Source of the DNA: Burkholderia sp.
GTDB lineage: Bacteria > Pseudomonadota > Gammaproteobacteria > Burkholderiales > Burkholderiaceae
Direction: 5' to 3'
Length of the DNA: 64,000 bases
Assembly: GCA_031253835.1 (NCBI GenBank)
Contig: JAIRVP010000043.1
Location: 124,001-188,000, forward strand
This document shows, piece after piece, positions 22,661 to 52,966 of this stretch. Made by a program: the position numbers and the translations under genes. Each line of letters begins with the position of its first letter. Positions within the stretch are counted from its first letter, which is position 1. The notes beneath the pieces were generated by a model. It searched no databases. It saw only the letters and a list, made by a program, of their open reading frames with translations, and was not told the origin of the DNA.

Positions 22661-22817
22661 CATCGTGGATACCGGCGTATCGCCGCTCGAATGCCGAGCC
22701 GCCAATCGTACCATTCGCGCGACCGCGTGCAGGCCGTCACAGCCGTGCTGAGACACGGCTGCAGCGCAAATCGCCGATGCCGGACCGGTGCCGAAATCGG
22801 GTATCCTACGGCCGTTC

Positions 22818-22992
22818 GTTCGCCGGTGCCCTTCGGGGCCGAAGAGGGAACACAGGGCGCGCCGCGCGCCGCTGTGGCTGCCCCCGCAACTGTAGACAGC
22901 GAGCCGATTCCCCCTCATGCCACTGGTTTTACCGGGAAGGCCGGGAGCCGGCGCCGACCTGTCAGCCAGGAGACCTGCCGGCCAGAAAGTGC
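22818..22992 (+). promoter_or_regulatory. Cobalamin riboswitch upstream of cobG
   Basis: It shows the canonical order: GGTGCC...GGGAA, then GCTGCCCCCGCAACTGTA with the following AGC, GCCACTGG (22920-22927), and the closing B12-box region AGCCAGGAGACCTGCC (22964-22979). Adenosylcobalamin binding to such RNAs lowers expression of downstream B12 genes. A TATCCT at 22802-22807 could be the -10 box, but the -35 is poor. Confidence 0.93.
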
Positions 22993-23064
22993 GTGCGTGC
23001 CAGTCGGCGTCGGGCGGGGTGTACCGATGCGTTGGCCGCGGCGCGACACGACCCCGGTATCCCG

Positions 23065-38640: not shown

Positions 38641-39324
38641 TCAGCCCGCGAGATCCGTGCGCAGCGTGTCGGCCGTCATCCATTGCGCGCCCCATGCGGC
38701 GGCGAGCCGCGCGCCCTGCCCGATCCGCACGGCCGCATCGTCGAAGTCGACGAACACGACGTGATCGGCCGCCGCGGGTTTCGCCGGCGTCTCGCGCGTG
38801 CGCCCGTCGGACAGCACCCACAGCCAGCGCTGCTTGCCGGGCGCGCGCCGCGCATCGCGTGCGAGCATCTGTGCGGCGGCCGCGATGCCGTCCGCGAGCG
38901 GCGTGCCGCCGCCGCCGTCGACCGGTTCGAGCCAGCGTGCATTCCACCAGCGCGGCACGGCCGGGCCGAAACGCCGCGCGGCGCCTTGCCCGCCGAAGCA
39001 GATCAGCGCGGTTTCGACACGGTCGCGCGCGGCCTGGTCGAAATACGCGACGATCAGCCCCTTCGCGAGCGCGAGCCGGTCGTGCGCCAGCATCGACGCC
39101 GAACAGTCGAGCACGAAGCAATGCAGCGCGTGCGGCGTGCCCGCGCGTTTCCGGAAGCGCACGTGCTCGTGACGCAGCGGGCCGCCGCGTTTCGCGGCGA
39201 GCGTCGCCGGCCACGCAACGGCCGTGCCGGCGCGTGCCGTGCCCGGTACGCGCGCGGCTGCGCCTGTCTGCCATCGAGGACCGCGAACGGCGTTCGCGGC
39301 GGCACCGGCTCGATGGCTCAGCGT
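38641..39324 (-). CDS. chlD: VWA part of the cobalt chelatase ChlD, readable by -1 frameshift from chlI
   Basis: An open segment of 227 codons in the -1 frame relative to chlI, reaching from the slippery site to a stop at 38641. It encodes a linker, the conserved pre-VWA stretch (Trp-Pro-Ala-Thr-Leu-Ala-Ala-Lys-Arg-Gly) and a von Willebrand A domain with an intact metal site (Asp-Cys-Ser-Ala-Ser, Asp430 of the 584-aa fusion). ATG is absent ahead of the conserved region; the first GTG (39162) lies after it and would truncate the domain. The VWA subunit partners CobN and the AAA+ ring for cobalt insertion. Confidence 0.85.
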   Translation of the reverse strand, partial: TLSHRAGAAANAVRGPRWQTGAAARVPGTARAGTAVAWPATLAAKRGGPLRHEHVRFRKRAGTPHALHCFVLDCSASMLAHDRLALAKGLIVAYFDQAARDRVETALICFGGQGAARRFGPAVPRWWNARWLEPVDGGGGTPLADGIAAAAQMLARDARRAPGKQRWLWVLSDGRTRETPAKPAAADHVVFVDFDDAAVRIGQGARLAAAWGAQWMTADTLRTDLAG

Positions 39325-39332
39325 TTTTTTAG
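39270..39332 (-). promoter_or_regulatory. Programmed -1 frameshift signal at the chlI/chlD junction
   Basis: On the minus strand the chlI frame reads CTA-AAA-AAA-CGC-TGA. The A-AAA-AAA heptamer is at 39330-39324. Six bases later begins a 9-bp perfect stem, GCCATCGAG (39317-39309) with CTCGATGGC (39278-39270). Inside it an 8-bp hairpin CCGCGAAC/GTTCGCGG (39299-39281) closes on three bases. Slippery site, 6-nt spacer, structure and adjacent zero-frame stop match bacterial -1 frameshift cassettes. Confidence 0.8.
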
Positions 39333-40394
39333 CGGCAGCGGCAGCACGCCTTTGACTTCGCGCAGCCCGGCCGGCTCGGGCGGCAAGTAGCCCCAGTCGC
39401 CCTGGGATGCCGATGCGTCGCCCTGTGGCTCGCCCTGCCGGTGGTCGGGCCGCTGGCGCGCATCCGGCGGCGAACGATCGCCGCGTTCGTCACCGTGTTG
39501 CGACGATCCGTGCGACGGCGGCGCACCCGCATGGCGCCGGTGCCGCAGCACCGCTTCCGCCACACGCTCCACCTGCGACACCGTCACGGCATCGGCCTGC
39601 TCCAGCGCGGCCAGTGCGCGCGCGGCGCGCAGCATCACGAGATCGGCGCGCAGCCCGTCGACGGCCGCGTCGATGCACAGCGCGCTGACGCGCGCATGGA
39701 CTGCATCGTCGAAATCGAGTGCCGCCAGCCGCGCACGTGCCGCATGAATCCGGTCGCCGAGTTCGCGCTGGGCGAGCGCATGGCGCGCACGGAATGCGTC
39801 CGGATCGAGATCGAACGCGAGCCGCGCCTTCACGATCCGCTCGCGCTGCGCGGCGTCGAAGCAGTTCTCCAGTTCGACCATCAACCCGAAGCGGTCGAGC
39901 AACTGCGGGCGCAGTTCGCCTTCCTCCGGATTCATCGTGCCGACCAGTACGAAGCGTGCATCGTGCGCGTGCGACACGCCATCGCGCTCGACGATGTTCA
40001 CGCCGCTCGCGGCGACGTCCAGCAGCGTATCGACGAGTCCGTCGGCGAGCAGGTTCACTTCGTCGACGTACAGCACGCCGAGGTGCGCACGCGCGAGCAG
40101 GCCCGGCCGGAAGCGCACGCCGTTCTCGGCCAGCGCATGCGCGAGATCGAGCGTGCCCGTCACCTGCTCGTCGCTCGCCGACAGCGGCAGCGTGACGAAC
40201 TGGCCTTCCGGCAACAGCTCCGCGAGGCCGCGCGCGGCGGTCGATTTCGCGGTGCCGCGCGGGCCGCTCACGAGCACGCCGCCCAGCGACGGGTCGATCG
40301 CGGCGAGCAGCAGCGCCTGCTGCAGCGCGTCCTGCGCGACGAGCGCCGCAAACGGAAAGACCGCGCGCGCGCGGTGCATCGTCGGATCGGTCAT
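39318..40394 (-). CDS. chlI: Cobalt/magnesium chelatase AAA+ subunit
   Basis: A 358-aa ATPase. Walker A is at residues 44-52 (Gly-Pro-Arg-Gly-Thr-Ala-Lys-Ser-Thr) and Walker B at 108-112 (Leu-Tyr-Val-Asp-Glu), with sensor Asn in Gly-Thr-Met-Asn-Pro-Glu-Glu-Gly-Glu-Leu. The C-terminal 40 residues form a polar Gln/Asp/Ser/Pro-rich linker like that joining AAA+ and VWA parts in ChlD. It ends Leu-Lys-Lys-Arg at the slippery site. The ATG overlaps the cobN stop (ATGA, 40391-40394), so both are coupled and lie under the same riboswitch. Confidence 0.9.
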   Translation of the reverse strand: MTDPTMHRARAVFPFAALVAQDALQQALLLAAIDPSLGGVLVSGPRGTAKSTAARGLAELLPEGQFVTLPLSASDEQVTGTLDLAHALAENGVRFRPGLLARAHLGVLYVDEVNLLADGLVDTLLDVAASGVNIVERDGVSHAHDARFVLVGTMNPEEGELRPQLLDRFGLMVELENCFDAAQRERIVKARLAFDLDPDAFRARHALAQRELGDRIHAARARLAALDFDDAVHARVSALCIDAAVDGLRADLVMLRAARALAALEQADAVTVSQVERVAEAVLRHRRHAGAPPSHGSSQHGDERGDRSPPDARQRPDHRQGEPQGDASASQGDWGYLPPEPAGLREVKGVLPLPLKKR

Positions 40395-44206: not shown

Positions 44207-45295
44207 TTACGCCTGTTGCAGTTCGGCCGCGCACGCGGCGTCGAACGCGCGTTGCAGCGCGGCTGCGTCGAGCGCTTCGCCGATCAGCACGAAGCGGCTC
44301 GCGCGCGTTTCGCCGTCCTGCCAGCGACGGTCGAAATAGCTGTCGAAGCGGCGGCCGACACCCTGGATCACGAGCCGCATCGGCGCGCCGGGCAGCGCGG
44401 CGAAACCCTTCGCGCGGTAGATCGTGTGCGCTTCGACGACGCGCTGCAGCGCGGCGATCGTCGCTTCGCGCGTGCCGGCGTCGCCCGACACGACCACCGA
44501 GTCGAAATCGTCGTGATGGTGATCGTGATCGCCGTCGTCGGCCGAGCCGTGATGGTCGTGACGCAGGTGGATCGTGTCTTCCGATGCCGATTCGAGGCCG
44601 AGCAGCATCGCGAGGTCGAGCTCGCCGCGCGTCGCGCGCACGATCTTCACCTGCGGCGGGATCTCGTCGCGGATCGCGGTTTCGATCTGCGCAAATTCCG
44701 CCTCGCCGACGAGATCGGCCTTGTTCACGATCACGAGATCGGCGGACGACAGCTGATCGGCGAACAGTTCGTGCAGCGGCGATTCGTGGTCGAGGTTCGG
44801 ATCGGCGCGGCGCTGCGCGTCGACGGCCTGCGGGTTTTCCGCGAACTGGCCGCTCGCGGCGGCCGGCCCGTCGACGACGGTCACGACCGCGTCGACCGTG
44901 AAGCTGTTGCGGATCGTCGGCCAGTTGAACGCCTGCACGAGCGGCTTCGGCAGCGCGAGGCCCGACGTCTCGATCAGCACGTGATCGATGTCCGCGCGGC
45001 GCTCGACGAGCGCTTCCATCACCGGATAGAACTCTTCCTGCACGGTGCAGCACAGGCAGCCGTTCGCGAGTTCGTACAGCTGGCCCGCCGCTTCGCCCTG
45101 CGCACCGTCGGCATCCTCGCAGCCGATCCCGCAGCCCTTGAGGATCTCGCCGTCGATGCCGAGCTCGCCGAATTCGTTGACGATCACCGCGATGCGGCGG
45201 CCTTCGGCGTGCTGCAGGATATGGCGCATCAGCGTCGTCTTGCCGCTGCCGAGAAAGCCCGTGACGATCGTGACGGGAAGCTTGCGTAGGGTCAT
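44207..45295 (-). CDS. cobW: CobW-type G3E GTPase metallochaperone
   Basis: A 362-aa GTPase thought to deliver Co(II) to the chelatase. The P-loop is at residues 13-21 (Gly-Phe-Leu-Gly-Ser-Gly-Lys-Thr-Thr), the metal site is Asn-Gly-Cys-Leu-Cys-Cys-Thr, and the guanine motif is Asn-Lys-Ala-Asp. A His/Asp-rich loop near residues 243-262 (Asp-His-Asp-His-His-His-Asp-Asp) should bind metal too, followed by the CobW C-terminal domain. It is the main first gene of the riboswitch-controlled operon, directly before cobN. Confidence 0.95.
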   Translation of the reverse strand: MTLRKLPVTIVTGFLGSGKTTLMRHILQHAEGRRIAVIVNEFGELGIDGEILKGCGIGCEDADGAQGEAAGQLYELANGCLCCTVQEEFYPVMEALVERRADIDHVLIETSGLALPKPLVQAFNWPTIRNSFTVDAVVTVVDGPAAASGQFAENPQAVDAQRRADPNLDHESPLHELFADQLSSADLVIVNKADLVGEAEFAQIETAIRDEIPPQVKIVRATRGELDLAMLLGLESASEDTIHLRHDHHGSADDGDHDHHHDDFDSVVVSGDAGTREATIAALQRVVEAHTIYRAKGFAALPGAPMRLVIQGVGRRFDSYFDRRWQDGETRASRFVLIGEALDAAALQRAFDAACAAELQQA

Positions 45296-45437: not shown

Positions 45438-45637
45438 GGTGCTTCCTTGCGAACGGTCGACATCGTGAATGCCAACACGGCTGCCGCCGGCCCTGCCCGC
45501 GCCGCCTGCCGTTCGCCGGGCCGGCCCGGGCGCGTTCGCGCGGGAGCAGATCGGCGGAGGAAGCGGAAAACACCGGGCGTCGGGCCTGCTGCGGCCGTGG
45601 ACGATGCGCCGCCTCCCCGCGGCGCTGAACCCCAACG

Positions 45638-45866
45638 TTTAGGCCGGTATCCGGGCTGGCGAACACGCCGCTTCGCCTTCCCGGATGCGCGCGGCATCCA
45701 GTGGCGGTCGTCCGCCTGCACGCGGCAGGCGGCGAAGCGGCGCTGCGTCGCGCTGCACGCGACACGTTCGCTTACCGTTGCGGGGGCAGCACAGGTTGGC
45801 TCGGCTGCGGCGCAGGCAGGCTCCCTGTTTCCCGTTTAACTGCGCGCGCCGGAGCGGCACGCGCGA
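45638..45866 (-). promoter_or_regulatory. Cobalamin riboswitch upstream of the cobW operon
   Basis: On the minus strand in order: AGTTAAACGGGAAACAGG (45841-45824), CTGCCCCCGCAACGGTAAGC, GCCACTG (45705-45699), and the B12-box region GCCAGCCCGGATACCGGCC (45661-45643). These are the conserved blocks of the adenosylcobalamin riboswitch. It lies about 200 bp ahead of the small ORF and cobW and should turn the operon off when B12 is sufficient. Confidence 0.93.
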
Positions 45867-45883
45867 GCACCAAAACGCGTGCG

Positions 45884-45912
45884 AGTGTAGGCGGCGGTGC
45901 GGGGAGCGTCAA
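45884..45912 (-). promoter_or_regulatory. Sigma-70-like promoter of the cobW operon
   Basis: Minus strand: TTGACG (45912-45907), 17-bp spacer, TACACT (45889-45884). Transcription would start near 45877, just before the riboswitch. Confidence 0.65.
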
Positions 45913-45980: not shown

Positions 45981-46009
45981 TTCGCGCGGGCGAACCGCTG
46001 TGCTATCGT
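45981..46009 (+). promoter_or_regulatory. Possible promoter of the cobA operon
   Basis: Plus strand: TTCGCG (45981-45986), 17-bp spacer, and TATCGT (46004-46009) preceded by TGC, an extended -10. The predicted start near 46016 lies just ahead of the riboswitch. The -35 is weak. Confidence 0.45.
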
Positions 46010-46029
46010 ATGCGCCGCGTTCGGTGCTC

Positions 46030-46232
46030 GCATGTGCATTCCGCCCATGCAGTTAAACGGGAAACAGGAGGCGGATACCCGCCCGGCCTGTGCTGTCCCC
46101 GCAACGGTACGCCGCCCGCGCGACGCGCTCCCCGCGCACGCGCCCAGGCCGCCCGCGATGCCACTGCCCTTCACCGGGCGGGAAGGCTGCGGCCTGGCAA
46201 GCGGCCAGCCCGGATACCGGCCGACGCAAGGG
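46030..46232 (+). promoter_or_regulatory. Cobalamin riboswitch upstream of cobA
   Basis: It has the same conserved blocks as the divergent copy: AGTTAAACGGGAAACAGG (46051-46068), CTGTCCCCGCAACGGTA, GCCACTG (46160-46166), and GCCAGCCCGGATACCGGCC (46204-46222). The first block is an exact 18-base match and the last an exact 19-base match to the riboswitch on the other strand. Confidence 0.93.
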
Positions 46233-46408
46233 GCGAGCCCGATGCTCGCCGAACGCCCGATCCGCGGGGGACGGATGGGGTGCGCATTCCGCCCGCGTTC
46301 GCGCGGCTTCGCCCGATCCGTCATGCATTGCCTGTTCGCCGGCCGCCGATGTGCCGCCCGCCTTTCCTGTTCCACTGTTTCGACACGGTGCGTGCCGTGC
46401 CGCGTGCA

Positions 46409-50673: not shown

Positions 50674-50948
50674 GGTGTCGTCTCCTGGTGTGCTTTGGGG
50701 GAATGTGCGGCCAAGGATAGTCCGATCGACGGCAACCGGGCAGACGGAAAGTCGTCGTGGTAGCAACTGCTGGTTGCTGCATGAAAACGCGGCTCACCGC
50801 TGGTGCGAACTGGCCATCCGGACGACTGTCGCGGCTGATCCAGACCCGTGAAACGGGGTGCACCACATCGATTTTCCGTGCAAGAGGATCCGGCGATGGT
50901 CAATCAGATACTGGAAATACCGGCTTCACATCAAAGGCTTGCGAAATA
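50674..50948. other. Intergenic stretch upstream of the AbiE-type module
   Basis: A divergent gap between the M20 gene and the AbiE-type module; with the operator that follows it is about 345 bp. The right end is AT-rich. It must contain the leftward promoter of the M20 gene, but I see no clear -35/-10 pair for it and no gene. Confidence 0.4.
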
Positions 50949-51005
50949 TTGTTCACTTTTTGACGCTTGTACATTTTTTGTGTACGCTGATAAAAAAGTG
51001 AACAA
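50949..51005 (+). promoter_or_regulatory. Promoter embedded in a nested inverted repeat (AbiE operator)
   Basis: Outer arms TTGTTCACTTTTT (50949-50961) and AAAAAGTGAACAA (50993-51005) and inner arms GTACA (50969-50973) / TGTAC (50981-50985) share the centre 50977. A promoter TTGACG (50960-50965), 17-bp spacer, TACGCT (50983-50988) lies inside. AbiEi-type antitoxins are known to repress their operons by binding inverted repeats. Confidence 0.7.
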
Positions 51006-51018
51006 GCGATCCTCCCTG

Positions 51019-52092
51019 ATGCCCGAGAACGCCACTCTCCCGATGTCGGAACAGCACGTGCTCGACGAGGCCTGCGCCGCGTTCGGCCGTGCAACCCGGC
51101 ACTTCAGCGCGCGGCCCGTGCGCGTGCCGGCTGCGTGCCGCGCGCGTGCCAATGCGATGATCCGCTTCGACGTGGCCGGGCACGTATTCGAGATGCCGGC
51201 CGCCGTGAGCCTGCGTGCCGAATCGCTGACGGGCGCGCTCGCGGAATTGCGCCGCCGCGGCGGCGACGCCCCGAAGCCCGGCGAGCGACCGCTGATGCTG
51301 GTCGTGCCGCATCTTTCGACCGAACTGGCCGCCGGACTGATCGACCAGGGCATCCCGTTTCTCGACACCGCCGGCAACACATGCCTGATCCAGCCGGAGG
51401 CAACCATCATGATCGCAGGCCGGCCGAAACCCGCTCGCGCACCGCGCCGGCACGCGTCGCGCGCGACCACGCCGAAGGGGCTGGCCGTCATGTTCGCGCT
51501 TGCGACGCGGCCGGGCCTCGTCGCGCAACCGTACCGGGAGATCGCCGCCGCGTCGGGCGTCGCGCTCGGCACCGTCAATCTCGCGATGGACGATCTGGTC
51601 GCACGCGGCCTGGTCGGGCAGCGCCGCAACGGCGAGCGCCTGATTCCCGACTGGCCGCGCTTCGTGCAGGAATGGGTCTCGCTGTACCCGAGCCGCTTGC
51701 GCGCGAAACTGCCGAGCCGCCGGTTTACCGGTCTTGCGCCCGACTGGTGGCGCCGCTTCGATTTCGCGGCCTTCGATGCGCAGCTCGGCGGCGAACCGGC
51801 GGCCGATCTGCTGACGCACGATCTGAAGCCTGCCGCGATCACCGTCTATACACACGGCGCGGTGTCGAACCGGCTGCTGTTGCAGGCGCGGCTGCGCCCG
51901 GACGAGCACGGCGACGTCGAAATCCTCGAAGCGTTCTGGCCGCGCTCGGCGGCGCTCGACTGGCGCGAGCAGGATGTGCCGCTCGTGCCGCCACTGCTGA
52001 TCTACGCGGATCTCGTCTCGTCCGGGGACAGCCGCAATCTCACTGCCGCCGAACGGATTCATGACCGATACCTCGCCCAGCCGCCCGCTTGA
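51019..52092 (+). CDS. AbiEi-type antitoxin/repressor of a type IV-like toxin-antitoxin system
   Basis: A 357-aa protein with a winged-helix segment in the middle (Pro-Tyr-Arg-Glu-Ile-Ala-Ala-Ala-Ser-Gly-Val-Ala-Leu-Gly-Thr-Val) and a C-terminal domain typical of AbiEi-family antitoxins. It overlaps by 32 bases with a nucleotidyltransferase gene, the standard AbiE pair order. The ATG at 51019 is used; an in-frame GTG at 50998 lies inside the operator. It likely binds the nested repeat just upstream and represses the operon. Confidence 0.8.
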   Translation: MPENATLPMSEQHVLDEACAAFGRATRHFSARPVRVPAACRARANAMIRFDVAGHVFEMPAAVSLRAESLTGALAELRRRGGDAPKPGERPLMLVVPHLSTELAAGLIDQGIPFLDTAGNTCLIQPEATIMIAGRPKPARAPRRHASRATTPKGLAVMFALATRPGLVAQPYREIAAASGVALGTVNLAMDDLVARGLVGQRRNGERLIPDWPRFVQEWVSLYPSRLRAKLPSRRFTGLAPDWWRRFDFAAFDAQLGGEPAADLLTHDLKPAAITVYTHGAVSNRLLLQARLRPDEHGDVEILEAFWPRSAALDWREQDVPLVPPLLIYADLVSSGDSRNLTAAERIHDRYLAQPPA

Positions 52093-52966
52093 AGTCGACG
52101 CGAGCCGGCCGCTCGAACCGGCGGCGATCGCGCTGTTGCAAGCGGTCGGCACGGTCTGCGCGCGCCTCGACGCACCCTTCGTCGTCGCCGGCGCAACCGC
52201 GCGCGACATCCTGATGTGGCACGTCCATGGCATCCGGCCGGTGCGCGCGACACGGGACGTCGACGTTGCCGTGTGCGCGGTGAGCTGGCCGTTTCACGCG
52301 CAACTCGTCGATGCACTCGTCGCGACGCGGCAATTCACGCGCGCGCCCAAACAGCAGCAGAAGCTGCTGTTCGACAGCGGCACGCACGGTTTTCGCACGG
52401 AGCTCGATCTCGTGCCGTTCGGGCCGCTCGAAACGCCGCCGGGAGAGATCGCGTGGCCACCGGGCGGTGAATTCGTATTGAACGTGCTCGGCTTCCAGGA
52501 AGCGGTCGATACCGCGCTGGCCGTGTCGATCAGTGCGGACACCGTGGTGCCGGTGGCGAGCCTGCCGGCGCTTGCGCTGCTGAAATTGCTCGCGTGGCAG
52601 GACCGGCGCGCGCGCCAGAACAGCGACGCGTACGACCTGCTGTTCCTGCTGCGCCATTATCACGACGCCGGCAATCGCGAACGACTCTGGGATGCCGCGC
52701 CGGACCTTCTGGAAGCGCATGCATTCCAGCCGGGCCTTGCTGCGGCCGGGCTGCTCGCGCGAGAGGCAAAACGGATCGCTTCGCCGCCAACGCACGACGC
52801 CGTCCGCACGCTCTTGTCCGACGCAGCGACATACACGGCGCTCGGCCAGGACCTGCTGGCCCGCGCGTTCGCATTGTTGCCGGGCGAATTCAGCGACGAC
52901 GCCGAACGGTATCTCGACGCGTTCCGCAGTGCGTTTCTCGCCGATCAGCCTGCCCCGCACGCATGA
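52061..52966 (+). CDS. AbiEii/AbiGii-family nucleotidyltransferase toxin
   Basis: A 301-aa nucleotidyltransferase-fold protein. The polymerase-beta-like core appears as Val-Val-Ala-Gly-Ala-Thr-Ala-Arg-Asp and Thr-Arg-Asp-Val-Asp-Val-Ala, giving the Asp-x-Asp metal pair. Lys in Leu-Leu-Lys-Leu-Leu-Ala-Trp is the usual downstream lysine. AbiEii proteins are growth-inhibiting enzymes in phage-abortive systems. Translation should be coupled to the antitoxin by the overlap. Confidence 0.8.
   Translation: MTDTSPSRPLEVDASRPLEPAAIALLQAVGTVCARLDAPFVVAGATARDILMWHVHGIRPVRATRDVDVAVCAVSWPFHAQLVDALVATRQFTRAPKQQQKLLFDSGTHGFRTELDLVPFGPLETPPGEIAWPPGGEFVLNVLGFQEAVDTALAVSISADTVVPVASLPALALLKLLAWQDRRARQNSDAYDLLFLLRHYHDAGNRERLWDAAPDLLEAHAFQPGLAAAGLLAREAKRIASPPTHDAVRTLLSDAATYTALGQDLLARAFALLPGEFSDDAERYLDAFRSAFLADQPAPHA

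What the first reader, a model, noticed from the sequence alone, without database searches (positions are those of the whole stretch)
39270..39332. Programmed -1 frameshift predicted to make ChlI and ChlI-ChlD from one gene
The chlI frame runs CTA-AAA-AAA-CGC-TGA. A perfect A-AAA-AAA slippery heptamer is followed, six bases on, by a 9-bp perfect stem enclosing an 8-bp GC hairpin. Slipping back one base continues for 227 codons through a conserved pre-VWA stretch and the VWA domain. That stretch (Trp-Pro-Ala-Thr-Leu-Ala-Ala-Lys-Arg) has no ATG, GTG or TTG before it, so independent initiation at GTG 39162 would lose it. The chlI C terminus is itself a ChlD-type polar linker. Frameshifting in chlD genes near cobN has been reported for other bacteria, so the general idea is known. 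The specific cassette here is read directly from the sequence.
Basis: partly seen in the sequence, partly recalled or inferred. Interest (0 to 1): 0.85.

Follow-up and report, generated by a model that had tools for sequence, protein, structure and literature searches.

The report
Known ribosomal frameshift in cobalt-chelatase gene
One vitamin B12 gene carries a conserved slip signal that should let ribosomes make two chelatase parts from one message; the signal is almost certainly real, but this kind of frameshift, in this same genus, was already published in 2013.

Summary
On the minus strand chlI ends CTA-AAA-AAA-CGC-TGA (A7 at 39324-39330), six bases before a 9-bp stem enclosing a second hairpin; the VWA domain lies in the -1 frame. 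Comparison makes programmed -1 frameshifting very likely. All 129 split orthologues examined (63 of the genus, 66 of eight other genera) keep the -1 offset, an in-frame A_AAA_AAR, a stop three bases later and cobN upstream. The stem covaries. The linker evolves as -1-frame coding sequence. The window's only possible VWA start, GTG 39162, is CTG in 47 of 51 genus loci. Eight more distant loci of four further genera carry the protein as one open frame, with no A run at the junction. The idea is not new: Antonov et al. 2013 (PMC3711429) list Burkholderia in their -1-frameshift magnesium-chelatase cluster and measured 10% for an A7 cassette of unnamed source in the section read. [quoted passage not shown] Added here: the census, the covarying hairpin, the in-frame contrast. 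No protein evidence exists.

The parts
45625..45889 (-). cobalamin riboswitch aptamer ahead of the cobW-cobN-chlI/D gene row
   Evidence: Rfam RF00174, 51.7 bits, E 5.6e-10
44207..45295 (-). cobW-like GTPase gene
   Evidence: Pfam cobW 189.6 bits and CobW_C 66.1 bits
40391..44200 (-). cobN, large cobaltochelatase subunit
   Evidence: TIGR02257 1581.7 bits, cut-off 822.05
39318..40394 (-). zero-frame ORF: ChlI-like AAA+ subunit, 358 aa, start ATG 40394 overlapping the cobN stop (ATGA)
39324..39330 (-). slippery heptamer A_AAA_AAA in the chlI frame
   Evidence: A_AAA_AAR in 129 of 129 orthologue loci, window included
39318..39320 (-). zero-frame stop TGA, three bases after the heptamer
39270..39317 (-). 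two-helix hairpin: outer 9 bp (39317-39309 with 39278-39270), inner 9 pairs (39300-39292 with 39288-39280)
38641..39324 (-). -1 frame after the slip: 227 codons, linker and VWA domain (ChlD C-terminal half)
   Evidence: (VWA_2, 32.1 bits)
39187..39213 (-). pre-VWA stretch WPATLAAKR in the -1 frame
   Evidence: W..T[LIV] in 111 of 128 linkers
39160..39162 (-). GTG, the only possible start of the VWA frame in the window; rejected as the usual start
   Evidence: CTG in 47 and GTG in 4 (window included) of 51 genus loci of equal linker length

Best explanation
This is a chlD-type gene with programmed -1 ribosomal frameshifting. Ribosomes translate the ChlI-like AAA+ frame. Some, probably most, stop at TGA and release the small subunit (358 aa). 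A fraction pauses at the hairpin with two tRNA-Lys on A_AAA_AAA, slips back one base and goes on through the linker and VWA domain to make the 584-aa medium subunit. With CobN, from the gene immediately upstream, these would form an aerobic cobaltochelatase of CobNST/ChlIDH type for B12 synthesis. Shown here: signal, frame offset, stem covariation, -1-frame coding of the linker, gene context. Inferred: the slippage itself, its efficiency, and the subunit roles. Slippage for members of this gene cluster was measured by others in E. coli.
For: A_AAA_AAR in frame with the stop three bases later in 63 of 63 genus loci (61 A7, 2 A6G) and 66 of 66 loci of eight further genera (65 A7, 1 A6G); VWA frame -1 in all 129. 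Both Lys codons are AAA in 126 of 129, whereas elsewhere in these genes AAA is 179 of 391 Lys codons (genus) and 158 of 506 (other genera). Outer stem: 99 of 128 loci pair 9 of 9 (G-U allowed) against 2.2% at control positions and 0.3% with a shuffled region. In a 53-sequence alignment 95.1% of cells pair, 8 of 18 pairs have both-side changes, 0 of 500 shuffles reach the covariation score, slid partners pair 26-47%. Length between the arms is a multiple of 3 in 128 of 128. Post-hairpin linker pN/pS is 0.50 in the -1 frame, 1.86 and 1.24 in the others (51 loci); no stop in 128 of 128 linkers. cobN directly upstream in 129 of 129. Eight in-frame homologues of four genera lack an A run at the junction. 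One ChlI match at E<=0.001 in the window's genome. Published reporter assays: 63, 40 and 10% for 11, 9 and 7 A's (PMC3711429 section 24).
Against: No protein or ribosome data for this species. The fold is not exceptional in 160 nt (z -0.26). With the right arm taken from another genus 33% of pairings still reach 9 of 9, because the arms are conserved in sequence as well. Many relatives have a possible start codon in the VWA frame: in the genus 48 of 63 at 60-120 nt after the stop and 7 of 63 before it; in the other genera 30 of 66 before the stop, 14 of 66 at 0-60 and 34 of 66 at 60-120; of 111 loci with the W..T motif 85 have some start before it and 26 none. The window's genome also has CobS-like and CobT-like genes elsewhere. 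The two-helix form was tested on 53 of 107 distinct segments. One genus locus, L062, near a contig end, has an early stop in the VWA frame (125 codons after the slip).
Confidence: 0.92

Rival explanations
1. The VWA protein is a separate gene, made by independent initiation or by termination-reinitiation at the chlI stop.
For: Many relatives have ATG/GTG/TTG in the VWA frame (genus 48 of 63 at +60 to +120; other genera 14 of 66 at 0 to +60 and 30 of 66 before the stop). The -1-frame codon overlapping the stop is CTG in 126 of 129, a weak possible start.
Against: The overlapping codon is never ATG and is GTG or TTG once each in 129, although one base change would give one. The window's only candidate, GTG 39162, is CTG in 47 of 51. 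The frequent +71 codon is GTG in 37 of 63 genus loci and otherwise GTA, ACG, CGG, GCG, GGC and others, so no start is kept there. The linker upstream of these codons is itself under -1-frame selection. The rival does not explain A_AAA_AAR or the covarying stem.
Confidence: 0.04
2. RNA polymerase slips on the A run, giving some mRNAs with an extra A that encode the fusion directly.
For: A homopolymer A7 in a 70% GC window.
Against: Run length is 7 in 124 of 129, 6 in 3 and 8 in 2; the three 6-A cases keep A_AAA_AAG, which suits tandem tRNA-Lys slippage. The conserved hairpin is downstream and not yet transcribed while polymerase is on the run (inference).
Confidence: 0.03
3. Sequencing error or decayed gene.
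For: Split frame; one relative (L062) has an early stop in the VWA frame near a contig end.
Against: The same split in 129 of 129 loci from different genomes; pN/pS 0.23 in the VWA segment; 128 of 129 have at least 197 open codons after the slip.
Confidence: 0.005

Closest known systems
-1 frameshift 'magnesium chelatase' cluster of Antonov et al. 2013, PMC3711429 (section 24 and search passages read)
   Same: Burkholderia is one of the six genera listed; -1 frame, poly-A slippery run, magnesium-chelatase part upstream and second gene downstream; three cassettes tested in E. coli gave 63, 40 and 10%.
   Different: The section read does not name the species of the three tested cassettes and does not describe a two-helix covarying hairpin.
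fs-chlD of Kuznetsov et al. 2022, PMC9227772 (parts 1 and 2 of 4 and search passages read), stage 8: fs-chlD giving both Co-chelatase subunits
   Different: The window's genome also carries CobS-like and CobT-like genes; Burkholderia is not named in that main text.
Magnesium-chelatase frameshift of Pseudomonas, Delftia, Methanocaldococcus and Methanococcus in Atkins et al. 2016, PMC5009743 (section 18 read)
   Same: A_AAA_AAR shift site and potential structure downstream.
   Different: The review says the sequence of the structure is not strongly conserved; in this family it is, and it covaries.
TIGR02442 single-ORF putative cobaltochelatase (ChlI and VWA parts in one frame)
   Same: Same two parts; in 8 loci of the family it lies within 0.5 kb downstream of a cobN match.
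   Different: In frame, no A run at the junction; 3 of these 8 pass the TIGR02442 cut-off.

Membership tests
chlD with programmed -1 frameshifting (fs-chlD) | A_AAA_AAR heptamer in the zero frame before the stop | tested here: met
   window and 129 of 129 loci, window included
chlD with programmed -1 frameshifting (fs-chlD) | ChlI-like frame followed by VWA domain in the -1 frame | tested here: met
chlD with programmed -1 frameshifting (fs-chlD) | downstream RNA structure | tested here: met
   (160 nt) not exceptional
chlD with programmed -1 frameshifting (fs-chlD) | cobN in the genome, here adjacent | tested here: met
   129 of 129 loci
chlD with programmed -1 frameshifting (fs-chlD) | no separate small-subunit gene | tested here: inconclusive
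   one ChlI match in G000 at E<=0.001, but a CobS-like gene at 531.8 bits, below the TIGR01650 cut-off 558.55
chlD with programmed -1 frameshifting (fs-chlD) | measured frameshifting and both products | not testable with these tools
   needs protein or reporter data
TIGR02442 Cob-chelat-sub as one ORF | whole-protein score over 779.45 bits | tested here: not met
   pieces searched apart: 378.9 bits and 68.7 bits
BchI-ChlI equivalog TIGR02030 | score over 466.95 bits | tested here: not met
   316.3 bits

The most novel reading that the evidence does not exclude
The frameshift ratio is a regulated switch: in an operon behind a cobalamin riboswitch, the conserved two-helix hairpin responds to cobalt, another cation, a corrinoid or tRNA-Lys state, and so sets the small-to-medium subunit ratio of the chelatase to supply.
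Probability: 0.06. Interest if true: 0.65.

Novelty: already known. Interest (0 to 1): 0.3.

Why it matters
The frame split is a deeply kept feature of the family and not an annotation error, so these genes are best annotated as one recoded chlD giving two proteins. The family holds both the split form with the signal and an in-frame form without it, which makes it a natural system to ask when and why an organism needs a set small-to-medium subunit ratio in the cobaltochelatase.

Tried and rejected
Rfam match for the hairpin: none at gathering scores. Terminator reading: the one terminator-like site found is at 40375-40360, not at the hairpin. Stop-codon read-through: the zero frame meets stops in 51 of 51 loci over the VWA segment. 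Shine-Dalgarno-like stimulator: such a 4- or 5-mer in the 20 nt upstream in 14 of 129. Plasmid records: two matches, Cupriavidus campinensis (74.7% over 56% of the query) and Haloarcula rara (10% of the query); not examined further. tRNA genes: none in the window and 51 matches in the genome; Lys anticodons were not sorted out.

Papers: three searches for the gene and its frameshift and one for Burkholderia with cobN and chelatase; I saw the listings, and passages of PMC9227772, PMC3711429, PMC5009743 and PMC8211752. The passages read do not describe this hairpin. Antonov 2020 (Mol Biol Evol; title and content recalled) is not held, and supplementary files could not be read, so the hairpin may be in print there.

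Faulty steps: one search placed the chlI stop wrongly for L015 and L029 (one search put this right). One search stopped on an indexing error after its first results; the selection test was rerun. One search printed A-run offsets wrongly; one search replaces them. One search read the split linkers in the wrong frame; one search replaces that part.

Rows dropped: L063 (N's) from stem and linker counts. 54 of 107 distinct segments left out of the covariation alignment by my choice, mainly those with another arm spacing or from more distant genera, plus a few near-duplicates. 12 of 63 genus loci with another linker length or N's left out of the selection test. Of the 98 of 200 family genomes with a match at E<=1e-40, 23 belong to the genus, 66 are split, 8 are in frame, and 1 (G232) has a separate chlI frame and a BchD-like gene.

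Full report
What is there. The window lies in a 7.55-Mb genome of 83 contigs. So the genus is Burkholderia; the species is not identified. On the minus strand a cobalamin riboswitch (45625-45889) precedes a cobW-like gene, cobN and a chlI-like frame that starts with ATG 40394 overlapping the cobN stop (ATGA). The chlI frame ends CTA-AAA-AAA-CGC-TGA; the VWA domain follows in the -1 frame, open from 39489 to 38641. Six bases after A7 begins a 9-bp stem that encloses a second hairpin (-28.7 kcal/mol, z -2.49; not exceptional in a 160-nt context, z -0.26).

Conservation. A search with the ChlI piece found a match in 64 of 65 genomes of the genus. I count 63 as orthologues: the match in G057, an 82% complete genome, is weak (E 1.1e-5), and G016 has none. 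All 63 have the VWA domain in the -1 frame, A_AAA_AAR in the zero frame and a stop three bases later (61 A7, 2 A6G). In the family, 98 of 200 genomes drawn match at E<=1e-40: 23 belong to the genus; 66 belong to eight other genera and all are split in the same way (65 A7 and 1 A6G, stop TGA in 65 and TAG in 1); 8 from four further genera carry one open frame matching the whole or nearly whole TIGR02442 profile, 3 of them over its cut-off; 1 has a separate chlI frame and a BchD-like gene. cobN lies directly upstream in 129 of 129 split loci. In 128 of the 129 the -1 frame stays open for at least 197 codons after the slip; L062, near a contig end, stops after 125.

In-frame contrast. The 8 in-frame homologues have no run of 6 or more A at the junction; two have an A6 elsewhere, at codons 251 and 162 of the open frame. 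Each lies within 0.5 kb downstream of a cobN match (coordinates). They are more distant in sequence (best ChlI matches 44-51%), so the contrast is suggestive and not a sister comparison.

Structure. For 128 loci (one had N's) the 9 bases after the stop find a right arm pairing 9 of 9 in 99, 8 in 26 and 7 in 3. Controls: at positions further downstream 2.2% reach 9 and 25% reach 8; with a shuffled region 0.3% reach 9; with the region of another genus 33% reach 9, because the arms are conserved in sequence too. The distance between the arms takes eight values, all multiples of 3 (128 of 128). For 53 of the 107 distinct segments, chosen by me and aligning without gaps, the two-helix structure pairs in 95.1% of cells, with 8 of 18 pairs changed on both sides and no shuffle of 500 reaching the covariation score; sliding the partner by 1-3 columns leaves 26-47% paired. 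RNAalifold, given no structure, predicts 17 of the 18 pairs. The inner hairpin was not tested in the 54 segments left out.

Coding of the linker. In 51 genus loci of equal linker length the part after the hairpin has pN/pS 0.50 in the -1 frame, 1.86 in the chlI frame and 1.24 in the third; the VWA part gives 0.23, with a stop in 1 of 51; the chlI tail before the slip gives 0.45 in the zero frame. No stop interrupts the -1 frame in 128 of 128 linkers. W..T[LIV] before the VWA domain occurs in 111 of 128, and the in-frame homologues have ATL at the corresponding place (by eye). At the slip both Lys codons are AAA in 126 of 129, whereas elsewhere in these genes AAA makes up 179 of 391 (genus) and 158 of 506 (other genera) Lys codons; relatedness of the sequences is not corrected for.

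Alternatives. Independent initiation is not ruled out everywhere, because many relatives have a start codon in the frame: in the genus 48 of 63 at +60 to +120 and 7 of 63 before the stop; in the other genera 30 of 66 before the stop (21 of them have one at -76), 14 of 66 at 0 to +60 and 34 of 66 at +60 to +120; 85 of 111 loci have some start before the W..T motif and 26 have none. But no position is shared by all; the window's only candidate, GTG 39162, is CTG in 47 of 51; the codon overlapping the stop is CTG in 126 of 129 and never ATG. Polymerase slippage is unlikely with runs of 6 to 8 and a downstream hairpin (inference).

Other chelatase genes. The window's genome also has a CobS-like gene (531.8 bits, cut-off 558.55) and a CobT-like gene (281.4 bits, cut-off 759.05) on another contig. 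The CobS-like gene is in 19 of 65 genus genomes at E<=1e-60. G016, which lacks chlI and cobN at E<=1e-30, keeps CobS-like and CobT-like genes. So this pair does not strictly follow cobN, and the split chlD beside cobN is the better candidate for its partner; that is inference. cobN was searched for in 5 genomes of the genus only.

Comparison with print. PMC3711429 (section 24) reports a cluster of 23 magnesium-chelatase genes with -1 frameshift in six genera, Burkholderia among them, and 63, 40 and 10% frameshifting in E. coli for 11, 9 and 7 A's. PMC9227772 (parts 1-2) gives the function as small and medium Co-chelatase subunits from one fs-chlD gene. PMC5009743 (section 18) describes A_AAA_AAR under purifying selection. 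The finding is therefore a correct rediscovery of a known case; what I add is the family-wide census, the covariation of the hairpin, the -1-frame selection test and the in-frame contrast.

Noticed in passing
L072 1432-3261 and L159 (G000 contig C64): CobS-like and CobT-like genes away from the cobalamin cluster; the CobS-like one is in 19 of 65 genus genomes, and both kinds are kept in G016, which has no cobN match; function unclear.
   Followed up: partly
window 45625-45889 (-) and 46004-46239 (+): Two divergent cobalamin riboswitches back to back between cobW and a tetrapyrrole methylase gene; a third at 22807-22996.
   Followed up: no
window 50848-52966: Neighbouring genes with AbiEi_2 antitoxin and AbiEii toxin domains (AbiE type IV toxin-antitoxin pair).
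   Followed up: no
L073 1486-3189 and L160 (G000 contig C55): A second, more divergent MoxR/VWA-type pair matching CobT (100.8 bits) and CobS (126 bits) weakly.
   Followed up: no
loci of genus g10, such as L097 and L103: By eye the outer stem is longer in several of these loci and the inner hairpin differs from the window's (sequence printed).
   Followed up: no
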